Below are positions 54,636-61,034 of a stretch of 64,000 nucleotides of DNA, piece by piece. The position numbers were made by a program, and so were the translations under genes. The notes beneath the pieces are model-generated. The model saw only the letters and a list, made by a program, of their open reading frames with translations, ran no database searches and had not been told where the DNA came from. Numbering within the stretch: the first letter of the stretch is position 1; each line of letters starts with the position of its first letter. The stretch comes from Lasiosphaeria ovina (lineage: Eukaryota > Ascomycota > Sordariomycetes > Sordariales > Lasiosphaeriaceae). The DNA is taken from NCBI GenBank assembly GCA_033439765.1, contig JAULSN010000008.1:62001-126000 (forward strand). Reading direction: 5' to 3'.

Positions 54636-56390
54636 ATGCCGAAAGTCCACCTGCTCGATTATGTTGCTGGCAACGTGCGCAGTCTCGGCAATGCCATTGA
54701 GAAGATAGGGTACGAGGTCGAGTGGGTTAGGACGCCCGAGGAGGTCGCAAATGCTGAGGTGCGCTCTCCTTCGCTCTCCTGTGCTCCTTATTCTTTGTTG
54801 TCGAGCAGTCTGTCCAAACTCGCTCCCTGATCTGCTGCTGACGCCTAGCGCGGACAGAAACTGATTCTCCCCGGTGTCGGCCACTTCGGCCACTGCCTCT
54901 CGCAACTGTCTTCGGCGGGCTACATGCCTGCACTGCGCGCACATATTGATTCGGGAAAGCCGTTTATGGGAATATGCGTTGGGTTGCAGGCTCTGTTCTC
55001 TAGCTCCGCCGAGGACTCTGAATGCTCTGGATTTAATGTTATTCCTGGAACGCTCGACCGGTTTGACGACGCAACAAAAGCAGTACCGCACATCGGATGG
55101 AACAATGCATCGTGCCCCACGAATCCCACGTTATACGGCCTGCGCCCCGACTCCAAGTACTACTACGTTCACTCGTACAAATTTCCGTACAATGAGGGGG
55201 AACTAGAAGCTTTGGGATGGGCTGTGGCCACTGCGACATACGGCGGCGAGACCTTTGTGGGCGCCGTGGCAAAGGGAAACGTTTTGGCTACACAGTTTCA
55301 CCCTGAGAAGAGCGGAGTTGCGGGCCTGAGAACGCTCCGCGCATTTTTGGATGGGTCTGGCGCTGCGGCATTGGCGACGCAATCTCCAGGGGCAACCAAC
55401 GGCGTCGCGGATACCCTGATCGCACACGAAGGGCTGACAAGGCGCATAATTGCGTGTCTCGACGTGCGCACCAACGACCAGGGCGACTTGGTTGTTACCA
55501 AGGGTGACCAGTATGACGTGCGGGAGAAGTCTGACCGGTCTGTACGAAACCTTGGCAAGCCGGTCGAGCTTGCGAGGAAGTACTACGAGCAAGGAGCCGA
55601 CGAGGTGACGTTCTTGAACATCACTTCCTTTCGTGACTGCCCGATTGCCGACTTGCCGATGTTGGAGATCCTAAGGAAAACATCAGAAACTGTTTTCGTC
55701 CCACTGACGATAGGCGGCGGCATTCGGGACACGGTGGATGTAGACGGAACCAAGGTCTCGGCCCTCGAGATTGCAACCATGTACTTCAAGAGCGGAGCCG
55801 ACAAGGTATCCATTGGCAGCGATGCCGTCCTTGCTGCCGAGGAGTACTATGCGGGGGGGAAGTCACTGTTCGGGAACACTGCTATCGAGCAGATCAGCAA
55901 AGCTTATGGCAACCAAGCGGTTGTCGTGAGTGTGGACCCCAAGCGGATATATGTGCCCAGGCCTGATGTCACACGCCACGCGACGCTTAAGACGCAATAT
56001 CCCGGGCCAAAGGGGGAGCAATACTGCTGGTACGCGTGTACGATCAAGGGAGGGAGGGAGACCCGGGATATGGACGTTGTGGAGCTTACTCAAGCCGTTG
56101 AAGCGATGGGCGCGGGAGAGATCCTGCTCAACTCCATCGACAAGGACGGCACGAACAGCGGGTTCAATCTGGAGCTAATTACGCAGGTCAAGGAGGCGGT
56201 TAGGATACCTGTCATTTCTAGCAGTGGAGCAGGAATCCCTGACCACTTCCAGGAGGTCTTTGAGAAGACGGCGACAGATGCTGCTCTGGGCGCTGGAATG
56301 TTCCACAGAGGCGAGTATACTGTACAACAGGTGAAAGACTTCTTAGGGGCCAAGGGTCTCGTGGTTAGACACTTTGAGGGAGACCTCTAA
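54636..56390 (+). CDS. HIS7: Imidazole glycerol phosphate synthase, bifunctional HisH-HisF
   Basis: Exons 54636-54758 and 54849-56390 encode 554 residues; yeast His7 has 552. The N-terminal class I glutamine amidotransferase domain carries [19 protein letters not shown], the oxyanion strand [10 protein letters not shown], nucleophile Cys84 in GICVGLQ, and His192/Glu194 in TQFHPEKSG. The C-terminal cyclase (HisF) domain begins near [10 protein letters not shown] and contains [52 protein letters not shown] and PVISSSGAG. The enzyme uses glutamine-derived ammonia and PRFAR to make imidazole glycerol phosphate and AICAR, the fifth step of histidine synthesis, and feeds purine metabolism. The intron is 90 nt. 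A GCN4/CPC1 element upstream suggests cross-pathway control. Confidence 0.97.
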
Positions 56391-56720
56391 GTTATGTCGC
56401 CTCCAATTCATCACGTTATTGGACTGAGTGTGAGACATTCCGATGCAACAAGTTCTCATCCTAAATATCCGTTGTCTGAGTTCGGCACGGCCTATTACGG
56501 CACTCTGTGAACCCATCCTAAGAATATTATCCCAATCTGTCGAGGAGCCACCCGATATCAAGGAAAAGGGGGGGTTGGATCGAGAAAAGAAAACACCCAA
56601 TAAGAGAAAAGTGAGTAATGAAGTATTGGCAATGAAAATCGAGACTGAGCCACGAATGACAGTGAAGAATCCCTCAACATCACACTCCTAATGCAATAAG
56701 CATGCACACTGTCTGCATCC
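56391..56720. other. Intergenic region between convergent genes
   Basis: Lies between the convergent HIS7 and antizyme 3' ends. Nothing recognisable is seen. Confidence 0.5.
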
Positions 56721-57861
56721 TTAGACTTCCATGCCCATGAACAACCATTGACGACTGATGACGTCGCACCCCCCTGAGATGAAATCGAGTGCGGTGAGTG
56801 AGAACCCAGCCCATTGCAAACCCTTGGTTAACGCCTGCGCCTCATCTCCGGGTATCGAACGATCGATGCAAATGACCATGTGTGTGCAAACAAATGGACC
56901 TTCGGCAAGCTCGATCAAAGCGACGAGCCTGTTTAGGAGGGGTCAGCTGGGATCCATTTCCAACAGTGTGTGCTGAAGAGGGGTATATGCATGGGTAGAC
57001 GTAAGACCAGGTACATACGCTTTCTTGAGGTCGCGGCTAAGGACGTGAGCATCAAAGAAGACGAACATAGACTTTTCCTCCCCGTTGACATCCTCTGCCA
57101 GGAATGCGCGGAAGCTCGAGCCGCCGGCATAATCCCAGATCTCCAACCACGCGTTGACGCCGTGGCCGCCGCCGCCGCCCGCCATCCAATTTTCATTGGC
57201 AATGGGATAGTCGTAGGGTGGTGTCAGTGGTCCAGCAGCGGCCGTCATGCCAACGCCGCCGGTAGGAGTTCCATCCAAGATCGGACGGCCGTTACCACTC
57301 CCACCACCTGTATTATGAACAATGTTGGTGTTGGTATCGTTGTAGTAGTACGTGTTGTTGTTATTGTTGTTGTGGTTGTTGTGGTTGTTGTTGTCGTTGT
57401 TATAGGCACTGGTCAGGCGGGAGTGCTGCGACGCCGAGTTCCCCTCACCTAGAAACGTGGCGCGCAGTATCTCGCAAAAGAATCTCTCACATTCTTCCCT
57501 GATCCGCAGTGCTGCCCCCCCTCGACGGTGCTGTCGAGTGGTGTTGTTGCCCGAGCCGGTCCGACCATGGATGCTGCTACGCGATGATGACTTCCTCGCC
57601 TTGGGAGTCAGCGTGAGCTCATTGGTCGGCGTGAGGGCCGCGAGGGGGGGGCTTGAGGGCGGCGATGGAAGTCCCGTGGAAGGGACCTCAGGAATACCAC
57701 TCAGCCCCTGTGGCGCCCGTAGTGCAGTAGTGGAAGCCCTTCAGCGAAGTGGCAGACGAGTCGACCAGGTAGCAGCTGGCGAGGATATTGGCCTGGCGAA
57801 CAATGCCCTCGCCGGGTTTACTACTACTGTAATTATTACTGTTCTGTTTCATTGGCGCCAT
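56721..57861 (-). CDS. OAZ1: Ornithine decarboxylase antizyme with programmed +1 frameshift
   Basis: ORF0 runs from the ATG at 57861 to the UGA at 57690-57688. It encodes 57 residues ending TTGATGAEWYS, then TCC TGA. ORF1 continues in the +1 frame from 57689 to 57019, and after an intron (57018-56929) from 56928 to the stop at 56721. Skipping the T of TGA yields EVPSTGLPSPPSSPPLAALT, and the whole protein is 349 residues. The C-terminal half has the antizyme core: WLEIWDYAGGSSFRAFLAED, MFVFFDAHVLSRDLKKALV, HMVICIDRSIP, KGLQWAGFSLTALDF and WLFMGMEV. Antizyme binds ornithine decarboxylase monomers, drives their ubiquitin-independent proteasomal decay and inhibits polyamine uptake. Known antizymes use UCC-UGA +1 shifting stimulated by polyamines. 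A poly-Asn stretch from AAC repeats lies between the shift site and the core. ORF0 could start at a second ATG at 57852. Recorded as one CDS; the break at 57690 is functional, not damage. Confidence 0.93.
57345..57407 (-). repeat. Asn-coding AAC/CAC trinucleotide tract in antizyme ORF1
   Basis: On the coding strand AAC, AAT and CAC codons repeat and give an Asn-rich stretch with His interruptions, followed by TYYYND. It is a slippage-prone low-complexity linker within antizyme. Confidence 0.85.
57688..57693 (-). promoter_or_regulatory. +1 ribosomal frameshift site TCC-TGA
   Basis: On the coding strand the ORF0 end reads TAT TCC TGA GGT. The frame shifts by skipping T at 57690 and resumes with GAG at 57689. 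UCC-UGA is a shift site I recall for eukaryotic antizymes. Downstream residues in the new frame (LPSPPSSPPLAALT) are typical of fungal antizymes as I remember them, which ties the shift to this point. Confidence 0.92.
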
Positions 57862-58327
57862 TGAGACTTGAGGATGCCAGTTTCGCTGGCAATCGAATAT
57901 AGACTCGGTATATCGGACGGGATGCAGTGTTGCGGTCGTCGCGGCGGATTTCGAGTGCGGATGAGGATGCGAAGTGGCGGATTTGGAGAATCCGAGAGGA
58001 GACAAGGGCCGTGGAGGCGAGGTCTGATCCGTCAGGAGCAAAAAGGTACAGGGCGGCGAGAATGGCGAACCAAAGGGATTCAACAACTGAGAAGCTTGAG
58101 AAGCGACTTTTTTTTGGCGATTGTGCGTTTCTGCGATACAACGACGATTGAGTCAGGGCGGGTGAAATGGCGGTGTTACAAAGCTGACGAGCAGGATATC
58201 CTTGGGTTTGTATGGATGTGTCCGGTGGGAGGTATGAGGGAAAACCTAGAAGAATCTCGTTGGCTCAGCTGGGCAGATAAAGGTGGGGTGGCGGAACGAT
58301 CCTTGCTCTGAATGGACGAAGGGCTGT

Positions 58328-58333
58328 CACGTG
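58328..58333. promoter_or_regulatory. CACGTG E-box upstream of antizyme
   Basis: TCACGTGT lies about 470 bp upstream of the antizyme start and 8 nt from the perfect inverted repeat. CACGTG is the core for bHLH factors of the Cbf1/Tye7 type. Function is inferred. Confidence 0.4.
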
Positions 58334-58341
58334 TTTACCGC

Positions 58342-58394
58342 GCCCGGGCTGGTTGGGCCACATCTCCGACGGCCGTGGCCCAACCAGCCCGGGC
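58342..58394. repeat. Perfect 20-bp inverted repeat (hairpin) with 13-nt loop
   Basis: Arms 58342-58361 and 58375-58394 are exact reverse complements (left arm starts GCCCGGGCTGG and ends GGGCCAC). The loop is 58362-58374. The arms are GC-rich, so a strong cruciform or RNA hairpin could form. Confidence 0.95.
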
Positions 58395-58844
58395 AAGGCA
58401 CATCAAACCGACAAAGAACCCCAACCAAAAGTTATCTTCCAAGTTTCGACGCCATGACCTGCGAACCGCAGCGCCATTGGCCTGGTCTTGCCTATGAATT
58501 GGGCCCTCCCAGACCCACCTACGCAGGCCTGCGAACTGGTTTTGGGGACTTGATCTGGCCAAACCAACGTGAGCAACAGGCATTTGTGAAGGAAACCGCG
58601 TTCAGCTGGATGCGCCTCTGTCATTCCAATACTTGGCAAGCTGAAGTAGATCGGTATGATTGTCAATGTCACCAGAAATCACTTTGGTATTAGCGTCACT
58701 GGAGCGTAAATGGTATACGAGTGATCTACACCACCCAGGGTGCCTTGTTCCCCGTGGTCTTCCAGGCTGAGTGGGAACAATTCCCGTCAAGTCCACAACA
58801 CCACTCTCGCACGCCGCATTAAAACGGGTGCACCTCAGGCCTCT

Positions 58845-58869
58845 TTTTATTTTATTTTATTTTATTTTA
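58845..58869 (+). repeat. (TTTTA)5 microsatellite
   Basis: Five TTTTA units in tandem in non-coding sequence between the antizyme and Yippee genes. Confidence 0.85.
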
Positions 58870-59921
58870 ATTCGTAGTTGTCGCTTACACCGGTCAACAC
58901 CGGAAGTCCACATTGTACCGCGTTGACCTCTTAGACAGCTAGTATTGTACAGTACAATGCACTTGTGGCAACATCACTGATAACCACTACCAACGCCACC
59001 ATTAAGTCTCAATGTGCCGCCTGCCACCGAGGTTGCAAATCGAGTCGCAGCGATCGGGTCCGTGGGCACGCTGGGCGAGTCATTCTGTCCCAGCTCTGGC
59101 AACATGGAATGTATGTACCGTAGAACTCCCTTTCTTTCAGGTCATCTGGGCACTCGTCCAATTGCGTGCTGTATGGCGATTGCTGATACTGAAAATGGGG
59201 ACCTAGGCCACAGAGAAAATGAAGGTTGAATTGGGCCTAGAGCCGCGGGTTAGCAACGGCTTGAGCGAGGTGTTGGCTGCAGATGCCCCACCACGGCAAT
59301 CCGTCCAGGGGGAGGCGTTCAAGGATAGCCCCGCACCATACCTATCGATAACGGCGGCAGCAGAGGGGTCACCTGCCGCATGACAGGTCAGGTCAGGCTG
59401 GGCCGCTCGAGCTCCTTGGCGCCAAAGCCAGCTCTCATCTTGACGCAAGCGGAAAAGAGGTGATGACCGTTGCAGGCGGTGAGTGAAGTGGCAAAGGATG
59501 CAGGGACGAAATATTGCGACGGATGGTTTCCCCAGACTATATCGGTGCTTTGTCCACCAGCTCACGCCGTTTGTTGTTTGCAGATGCATAGCACGGCGTG
59601 ATCACCAGATTGCGGGGCACCGGCTTACAAGGCATGACTTGACAAGGCGGGACATGAGTAAAGTCCCCCTCCATTACATTGTGCAGAGCCGATCCGTCGC
59701 CGAACCTTCCGAACGAAAAGGACCGGTCGCTGCCCCTACCTACCCGCCGCGGGAGGCTGAGACGGCGAGTATGGTTATGGCCTGCCATACTCGACCTCCA
59801 AGCTCCAACCTTTGAGACGAAGGTAGTCTGCCTGCGCCGACCATTTCACCAATAATTGTTTCCTATTTCGTCTTTGATCACTTGCCGCCAGCCTCCGCAA
59901 CCACCGCCTCGCTCGGAAGCA

Positions 59922-61034
59922 ATGTTTGGCGACTTCACCACCTCGGGCCGGCCCGCCGCGTCCCCGGCCACTGATGATGGCCCGATGTTCCCACTATATC
60001 TCCTTCCCAGCTTCAGCCTACCGTTTCGTCGCCGGCGCGCGTCCATCTCATCGGCGGCGCCTCCCGTTACCGCCCAAGCTATCACCTACGACAGTCCTGT
60101 CCCATCTCTCTCCAGCTCACCGGACTCGCTAACCTGCCTTGGCTCCCCAAGTAGCCCAAGGAGCTTCAAATCTTTCTTTCCCGAGCTGCCGAGTCTGAAC
60201 GACTACGGCAACCTCGACGAGCCCCAATCCAAGAAGCCAGGCCCAGCTGCCCTTCCACCTAGTTCCAGGCTCTCCCGCGCCCAGCCTGACACGCTCCGCT
60301 GCGGCACCTGCGCCACTGACGTCGCCTTTTCCTCGCAGATCGTCAGTAAGGGCTTCACGGGCCGCCACGGTCGCGCATACCTTGTGTCGCCGCCGCAGGC
60401 GCACGCGACGCCCAGCTGCCCGGGGTCGCCTCTAAACAGCAACAACGCCGGGGCAGCCGCTCCGGGCAGCGTGACGGAAGCAGACCTGCTCAACATCCGC
60501 GTCGGCCGCTCCGAGAACCGCCAGCTGGTCACCGGCGCGCATGTCGTAGCCGATATCAGCTGCGGCGTGTGCGGCACCAAGCTGGGCTGGAAGTACGTCG
60601 ACGCGCGTGAGTCTGCGCAGAAGTACAAGGTCGGCAAGTTCATCCTCGAGACGCAGCGCGTCGTGGCGCACCACGGCTGGGAGGAAGCCGCTGTTGCCAG
60701 CAGCGGTGGTAGTTCTCTGTCGACCGCCGGCCAAACCGAAGAAGAGAACGCCGCCCATGTTAGGACGTGGAGAGGAGGAAGACTTGGCTGGCGGAAGCGT
60801 AGCAGACCCTCCCGGGCGTCTCAGGACAGCACTGCCGCTAGCAGCAGCAGCAGCACCGATGCGCGAGGCCGCAATGACGACGATGACAACGGCGACGAGG
60901 TGATTGTGTTTGACTCGGACGACTCGGATGAGTGCGAGGACATCTTTGCCGGCGTGTGGGACGCCGACGTCGTCGCCAAGCGGCGGAGGGGCAAGGTCGG
61001 GAACCTCCGCCGGAGGACCGGTGCCGCTGCCTAG
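59922..61034 (+). CDS. Yippee-like zinc-binding domain protein
   Basis: Single exon of 370 residues from the first ATG of the frame (MFGDF; upstream codons use no ATG). The Ser/Pro-rich N-terminal 115 residues precede a Yippee/Mis18-type fold. The first CxxC pair is Cys127/Cys130 (LRCGTCATDV), then FTGRHGRAYLV, NIRVGRSENRQLVTGAHVVADI, the second pair Cys214/Cys217 (SCGVCGTKLGWKYVDA) and YKVGKFILETQRVV. The interdomain stretch between FTGRHGRAYLV and NIRVGR carries a Ser/Gly/Ala-rich insertion not present in short Yippee proteins. The C-terminus is charged (DDDDNGDEVIVFDSDDSDE) with a basic tail (KRRRGKVGNLRRR). The protein is presumably nuclear; yeast Moh1 is a short relative. The molecular role of Yippee proteins is poorly known. 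The assignment rests on the four cysteines and the WKY..A.E motif. Confidence 0.88.
   Translation: MFGDFTTSGRPAASPATDDGPMFPLYLLPSFSLPFRRRRASISSAAPPVTAQAITYDSPVPSLSSSPDSLTCLGSPSSPRSFKSFFPELPSLNDYGNLDEPQSKKPGPAALPPSSRLSRAQPDTLRCGTCATDVAFSSQIVSKGFTGRHGRAYLVSPPQAHATPSCPGSPLNSNNAGAAAPGSVTEADLLNIRVGRSENRQLVTGAHVVADISCGVCGTKLGWKYVDARESAQKYKVGKFILETQRVVAHHGWEEAAVASSGGSSLSTAGQTEEENAAHVRTWRGGRLGWRKRSRPSRASQDSTAASSSSSTDARGRNDDDDNGDEVIVFDSDDSDECEDIFAGVWDADVVAKRRRGKVGNLRRRTGAAA

What the first reader, a model, noticed from the sequence alone, without database searches (positions are those of the whole stretch)
56721..57861. Antizyme gene needs a +1 ribosomal frameshift at UCC-UGA
The first frame (57 codons) ends at TCC TGA, and the conserved antizyme core lies in the +1 frame, split further by one intron. 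Skipping one T restores a continuous 349-residue antizyme. It is a self-regulated polyamine switch that gene callers usually break into fragments or lose. The separate reading frames, the shift codon and the C-terminal motifs are seen; polyamine sensing is established for the family.
Basis: partly seen in the sequence, partly recalled or inferred. Interest (0 to 1): 0.85.

Follow-up and report, generated by a model that had tools for sequence, protein, structure and literature searches.

The report
Frameshifted antizyme gene of a fungus
This is the fungus's ordinary polyamine-control gene (antizyme), whose two halves lie in different reading frames and are expected to be joined when ribosomes skip one base at a stop codon; the mechanism is well known, but the database gene models of its nearest relatives that were checked leave it out.

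Summary
On the minus strand a 57-codon ORF (57861-57691) ends UGG-UAU-UCC-UGA. Reading on from 57689 in the +1 frame, across one 90-nt intron (57018-56929), gives a 349-residue antizyme (Pfam ODC_AZ 3.3e-42). It is the only antizyme match in the 51.7-Mb genome, and ornithine decarboxylase, the expected target, is there. Best relative: Lasiosphaeria miniovina, 84%.

Relatives share the break as far as protein models can tell: the 57 of 120 listed homologues read in the +1 frame through the site all fit it, wobble U of UAU included. None of the 120 models carries the shift; 116 bypass the stop by joins that differ even within genera. In the window 28 GT-AG pairs could do so; none has a consensus donor.

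The mechanism is known: a new member of a known kind. Possibly new: a conserved ORF0 peptide (LASCY in 114 and HYCTT in 87 of 120 models) and a hairpin directly after the stop. Either could be a frameshift stimulator of these fungi; neither is tested, and the 2007 antizyme survey is not held.

The parts
57691..57861 (-). ORF0, 57 codons, MAPMK...GAEWYS; ends UGG-UAU-UCC
   Evidence: LASCY in 114 and HYCTT in 87 of 120 homologue models
57688..57693 (-). shift site UCC-UGA; one base (T57690) skipped
   Evidence: sequence; 57 of 57 informative homologue models fit the same site; 14-mer around it unique in the genome
57694..57711 (-). 5' flank of the shift site, codons -7 to -2 (ACA GGG GCT GAG UGG UAU), likely RNA-level stimulator (module A type)
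   Evidence: third base U of codon -2 constant in 57 of 57; codon -6 reads NGG in 45 of 48 rows; function inferred
57670..57687 (-). 6-bp hairpin GGUCCC-UUCCAC-GGGACU directly 3' of UGA, candidate 3' stimulator
   Evidence: -8.9 kcal/mol; 8 of 1850 TGA positions in the window, itself included, fold as well; only modest against shuffles (z -1.63)
57019..57689 (-). ORF1 exon 1 (+1 frame): linker, conserved helix RRGGAALRIREECERFFCE, Asn-rich linker, first part of ODC_AZ core
   Evidence: helix in the model of orthologue P0001
56929..57018 (-). intron, 90 nt, GTATGT...CTGAC...AAACAG
   Evidence: protein contiguous with 23 homologues
56721..56928 (-). ORF1 exon 2, end of the ODC_AZ core, ...WLFMGMEV stop

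Best explanation
This is the single ornithine decarboxylase antizyme gene of a fungus near Lasiosphaeria (Sordariales, recalled placement). Ribosomes start at AUG 57861 and reach UCC with UGA in the A site. Some terminate there, giving a 57-residue peptide; a fraction slips +1 and reads GAG, making the 349-residue antizyme. As in the family, rising polyamines should raise the shift, and the product should bind ODC, block its dimer and send it to the proteasome. Shown here: gene structure, frames, domain, a site that relatives fit, presence of ODC. Inferred: the shift, its polyamine response, ODC binding and degradation.
For: ODC_AZ 3.3e-42 over the whole profile. Single antizyme in the genome and one Orn_Arg_deC_N match, whose frame matches ODC chains of the PDB at about 1e-108. 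84% identity to Lasiosphaeria miniovina; 359 homologues, 120 listed. In 57 of 57 informative rows the +1 frame reads GIPEVPx[S/T]G[L/F]PSPP, which at base level means NGG-NAU-HCC-NGA-R; the window's UGG-UAU-UCC-UGA-G fits, and the third base U of codon -2 is constant although Tyr is UAC in 21 of 31 codons counted in the HIS7 frame, ORF0 and ORF1. Three models whose ORF0 runs far enough show the Trp (P0089, P0106, P0206). Model of the L. miniovina orthologue: core pLDDT about 90, best PDB hit human antizyme in complex with ODC, 4zgy_B, E 2e-4. A Hypocrea virens EST encoding an antizyme is tabulated in PMC2375905, found by a tool that looks for two overlapping ORFs.
Against: No RNA, Ribo-seq or peptide data could be examined. 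None of the 120 database models shows the shift; 116 show another join. No relative's DNA was available, so site conservation is read indirectly from +1-frame protein models: first codon bases stay open, a frame-0 stop in the relatives is assumed, rows are related, and the regular expression itself fixes G, P, E, P and a downstream P (I, V, the next four positions and S-P-P were free). The Foldseek match has rmsd 10.2 and TM-score 0.55 on the target.
Confidence: 0.94

Rival explanations
1. Splicing, not frameshifting, joins the frames: a short intron in or around the end of ORF0 removes the stop or changes the frame before it, as public models of relatives show. As an alternative splice it would make antizyme independent of polyamines.
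For: 116 of 120 homologue models are drawn this way. Joins of the kinds used in them exist in the window: 57765-57708 (GTCGAC..CAG, 58 nt), 57757-57700 (GTCTGC..GAG, 58 nt), 57765-57687 (79 nt) and 57697-57652 (GTATTC..AAG, 46 nt). Seven listed models share the LASCYL|GPSGIPEVP join (P0005, P0007, P0010, P0024, P0026, P0054, P0080). 18 of the 28 possible pairs contain a YTRAY motif somewhere.
Against: None of 28 frame-restoring GT-AG pairs has a consensus donor (best 4 of 6 positions), and the four joins named here lack a YTRAY branch site, while the core intron has both. Joins differ between models of one genus (Coniochaeta, Neurospora, Colletotrichum, Trichoderma, Fusarium, Podospora, Diaporthe). 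Each join deletes sequence that other relatives conserve as ORF0 or as VPx[S/T]GLPSPP.
Confidence: 0.04
2. A pseudogene or an assembly error: one extra T breaks a normal gene.
For: A single-base difference joins the frames.
Against: 57 of 57 informative relatives fit the same break and flank; conserved core, intact splice sites, single copy.
Confidence: 0.01
3. Readthrough of UGA or an independent start of ORF1, not a +1 shift.
For: UGA is a leaky stop in general (recalled). A Met at residue 205 precedes the ODC_AZ core (235-349), so a core-only product is conceivable.
Against: Readthrough would stay in frame 0, not the antizyme frame. After Met4 the first Met is residue 205, so an internal start would lose the conserved helix block at 112.
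Confidence: 0.01

Closest known systems
[quoted passage not shown] human OAZ1 and S. pombe as examples are recalled
   Same: ODC_AZ core, short ORF0, UGG as second codon 5' of the shift codon, UCC-UGA, ORF1 in +1
   Different: UAU between them, where human has UGC (recalled); no Rfam frameshift-element match; a plain predicted hairpin follows the stop, no pseudoknot was shown
Hypocrea virens antizyme, fungal cluster F2 of OAF (PMC2375905, parts 1 and 2 of 4 and passages read)
   Same: a Trichoderma virens protein (P0061; Hypocrea virens by its other name, recalled) aligns with this one
   Different: an EST there, genomic DNA here; cluster membership was not run with OAF
Agaricomycete antizyme with nascent-peptide stimulator (PMC4505036, named sections and passages read)
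   Same: conserved ORF0 peptide just 5' of the site
   Different: shift site UUU-UGA; peptide action was shown there, only conservation here; the two peptides were not aligned
S. cerevisiae OAZ1
   Same: two-frame antizyme, +1 shift at a UGA
   Different: GCG-UGA-C site, intrinsically shifty with inhibitory signals (PMC5009743 passages)

Membership tests
Ornithine decarboxylase antizyme | ODC_AZ domain (PF02100) over the curated cut-off | tested here: met
   143.4 bits against cut-off 24.2, profile 1-114 of 114
Ornithine decarboxylase antizyme | short upstream ORF overlapped by a larger ORF in the +1 phase | tested here: met
   57 codons, then 292 residues in +1
Ornithine decarboxylase antizyme | shift site at the last sense codon before the ORF0 stop, usually UCC-UGA | tested here: met
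   TCC TGA at 57693-57688; 57 of 57 informative models fit it. The site is there; its use was not tested
Ornithine decarboxylase antizyme | antizyme fold like the ODC-binding fragment | tested here: met
   model of orthologue P0001; best PDB hits 4zgy_B (E 2e-4) and 5bwa_B (E 1e-3), rmsd about 10; the window protein itself was not modelled
Ornithine decarboxylase antizyme | target ODC encoded in the same genome | tested here: met
   one match, ODC chains of the PDB at about 1e-108
Ornithine decarboxylase antizyme | shift occurs and rises with polyamines | not testable with these tools
   needs reporters or Ribo-seq
Ornithine decarboxylase antizyme | binds ODC and promotes its degradation | not testable with these tools
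   needs biochemistry
Agaricomycete-type nascent-peptide antizyme | UUU-UGA shift site | tested here: not met
   site is UCC-UGA
S. cerevisiae-type antizyme | GCG-UGA-C shift site | tested here: not met
   site is UCC-UGA-G
Antizyme frameshift element of Rfam (that Rfam holds one is recalled) | match to an Rfam frameshift family | tested here: not met
   none among the 8 matches at E up to 10 in 55000-60000

The most novel reading that the evidence does not exclude
Sordariomycetes have their own two-sided control of antizyme frameshifting: an ORF0 nascent peptide ([VI]LASCY[LIV]VD...L[KR]GLHYCTTGxxGAEWYS) that senses polyamines in the exit tunnel, independent of the Agaricomycete one, and a hairpin abutting the UGA built from the codons of the V-P and G-L residues.
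Probability: 0.22. Interest if true: 0.6.

Novelty: new member of a known kind. Interest (0 to 1): 0.27.

Why it matters
It adds a clean fungal case of a known regulatory frameshift. More usefully, it shows that the 120 best database relatives listed are all modelled without the shift, so comparative work on these proteins starts from wrong N-termini. The conserved ORF0 peptide and 3' hairpin make a testable question: how many times have antizyme mRNAs evolved nascent-peptide sensing? A passage of the 2016 review (PMC5009743, cut off in the output) calls Agaricomycetes the only examples so far where bioinformatics had pointed to it.

Tried and rejected
Relatives' DNA: one viral-contig scan with alignment A1 found 5 pattern matches and no relative; genome contigs holds prokaryotes and was not scanned, and G000 has no relatives here, so covariation of the hairpin and codon-level tests of ORF0 could not be done. 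Sequence search of the PDB with the protein or with A1 found no antizyme; only the fold comparison did. Folding of the 90 nt before the site is no better than shuffles (z +0.86); the 3' region is modestly better (z -1.30, -1.63, -1.57 for three lengths). By a looser criterion, a stem at least as long and G+C-rich within 3 nt of a TGA, 48 of 1848 TGA positions reach it, itself included, so the hairpin alone is weak evidence. A first count of ORF0 conservation (90 rows) used a motif that fixed most of the columns it then counted as constant; I dropped it for a count without that motif. Synonymous change in ORF0: only the window and three +1-frame models (P0021, P0031, P0039) read through it; the +1 residues over HYCT did not differ, and one model differs at -10 and one at -9, so peptide-level against RNA-level selection stays open. 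The second homologue search, meant to reach other fungal classes by length, returned 120 proteins (119 new), of which I saw only one with ORF0 motifs, P0206. PMC1874602, the 2007 survey of close to 300 antizymes, is not held, so whether the peptide or hairpin is described there is unknown. The eight paper searches were seen as listings, apart from the three papers cited.

Full report
What is there. On the minus strand, ATG 57861 opens a 57-codon frame that ends GAG TGG TAT TCC TGA (TGA 57690-57688). From 57689 the +1 frame is open to a 90-nt intron (57018-56929; GTATGT, CTGAC, AAACAG) and goes on to a stop ending at 56721. Skipping one T gives 349 residues.

What it is. The joined protein matches Pfam ODC_AZ over the full profile, 3.3e-42. 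In the genome it is the only antizyme match, seen as two exon hits. The first search found 359 homologues, 120 listed, the best 84% identical (Lasiosphaeria miniovina); the organisms named in the list are filamentous ascomycetes that I recognise as Sordariomycetes (class recalled). An AlphaFold2 model of that orthologue has a confident core of about 115 residues (mean pLDDT of the whole model 63), and its best PDB match is human antizyme bound to ODC, E 2e-4, rmsd 10.2. The genome has one Orn_Arg_deC_N match, whose frame matches solved ODC chains at about 1e-108.

Is the frame break real and conserved? No relative's DNA was available, but 57 of the 120 listed models run in the +1 frame through the site. 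The pattern used to find them fixes G, P, E, P and a later P; the other positions were free. All 57 have Ile between G and P and Val after E. In bases this is NGG-NAU-HCC-NGA-R; the window's UGG-UAU-UCC-UGA-G fits, first codon bases remain open, and a stop in frame 0 is assumed. Trp itself is seen in three models whose ORF0 runs that far. Tyr is UAC in 21 of 31 codons counted here, so a constant U at the third place of codon -2 points to selection on the RNA, with the caution that the rows are related. Codon -6 reads NGG in 45 of 48 rows, while codon -5 varies at its third base, C 38, G 5, T 2, if it is Ala throughout. In the window's genome the 14-mer around the site is unique.

How databases treat it. 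By regular-expression classes, 0 of 120 models carry the shift. 54 join ORF0 to the +1 frame before the stop, 43 just after it, 19 further down, 3 have only the +1 frame and 1 is truncated. Models of one genus fall into different classes (Coniochaeta, Neurospora, Colletotrichum, Trichoderma, Fusarium, Podospora, Diaporthe). In the window 28 GT-AG pairs could do the same; none has a consensus donor, and the four that match joins seen in relatives lack a branch site, though 18 of the 28 contain a YTRAY motif somewhere. The joins are therefore most likely gene-caller artefacts; alternative splicing is not excluded. PMC2375905 (parts 1 and 2 of 4 and passages read) says that standard pipelines cannot recognise such sites and tabulates a Hypocrea virens antizyme EST.

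How it probably works. The family mechanism: UCC in the P site, UGA in the A site, a +1 slip helped by signals on both sides, and more slipping when polyamines are high, giving antizyme that removes ODC. Steps beyond gene structure are inferred from the family (PMC5009743 passages; PMC4505036 sections and passages).

Candidate stimulators. ORF0 is well conserved. With the first 75 residues of all 120 models aligned to the window's ORF0, without a motif filter, the LASCY positions are L 116, A 116, S 116, C 116 and Y 115 of 120; LASCY is exact in 114 and HYCTT in 87 of 120. Of the 33 without HYCTT, 3 have it with one change and 30 do not show the stretch in their first 120 residues, 4 of them being the models without ORF0. 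Other positions vary conservatively (K 82, R 16 at -17; V 81, I 35 at -32). The amino end is also conserved (MAPM at 105 to 114 of 120 per position), so conservation is not confined to the stretch near the site. The second block lies at codons -18 to -9, near the place of the Agaricomycete nascent peptide (-15 to -5, PMC4505036). Directly after the stop a 6-bp stem, GGUCCC/GGGACU, folds at -8.9 kcal/mol; 8 of 1850 TGA positions in the window do as well, itself included. Against shuffles it is modest (12 of 200). By my own mapping its arms are the codons of V-P and G-L; across the 57 rows V and G do not vary, P is fixed by the pattern and L varies once, while the residue in the loop does vary (S 33, I 20, T 3, F 1). 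This fits an RNA stem but also a plain protein motif.

Verdict. Right observation, right interpretation, known mechanism. New member of a known kind.

Noticed in passing
window 58342-58394: Perfect 20-bp inverted repeat with a 13-nt spacer, about 480 bp upstream of the antizyme ATG; the arm sequence has no other exact copy in the genome. Meaning unknown.
   Followed up: partly
window 57019-57689 (ORF1 exon 1): Conserved helix RRGGAALRIREECERFFCE lies outside the Pfam core and is about as conserved as the core (mean column identity 0.78 against 0.73 over the 54 rows of A2); whether it is fungal-specific was not tested.
   Followed up: partly
window 57350-57410: Asn/His-rich linker encoded by a trinucleotide-like repeat; shorter in the closest relative P0001.
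   Followed up: no
homologue models such as P0043, P0059, P0083, P0087: Extra residues between the CTTGAA part and PSGIPEVP hint at a real intron in ORF0 a few codons before the shift site in Colletotrichum and some Xylariales; none is seen in the window.
   Followed up: no
P0027 and P0089: Two different antizyme models are named for one strain, Coniochaeta sp. 2T2.1; paralogues or alternative models.
   Followed up: no
window 54849-56390: The neighbouring gene on the other strand is a histidine biosynthesis gene of HIS7 type (GATase plus His_biosynth; the name HIS7 is recalled).
   Followed up: no
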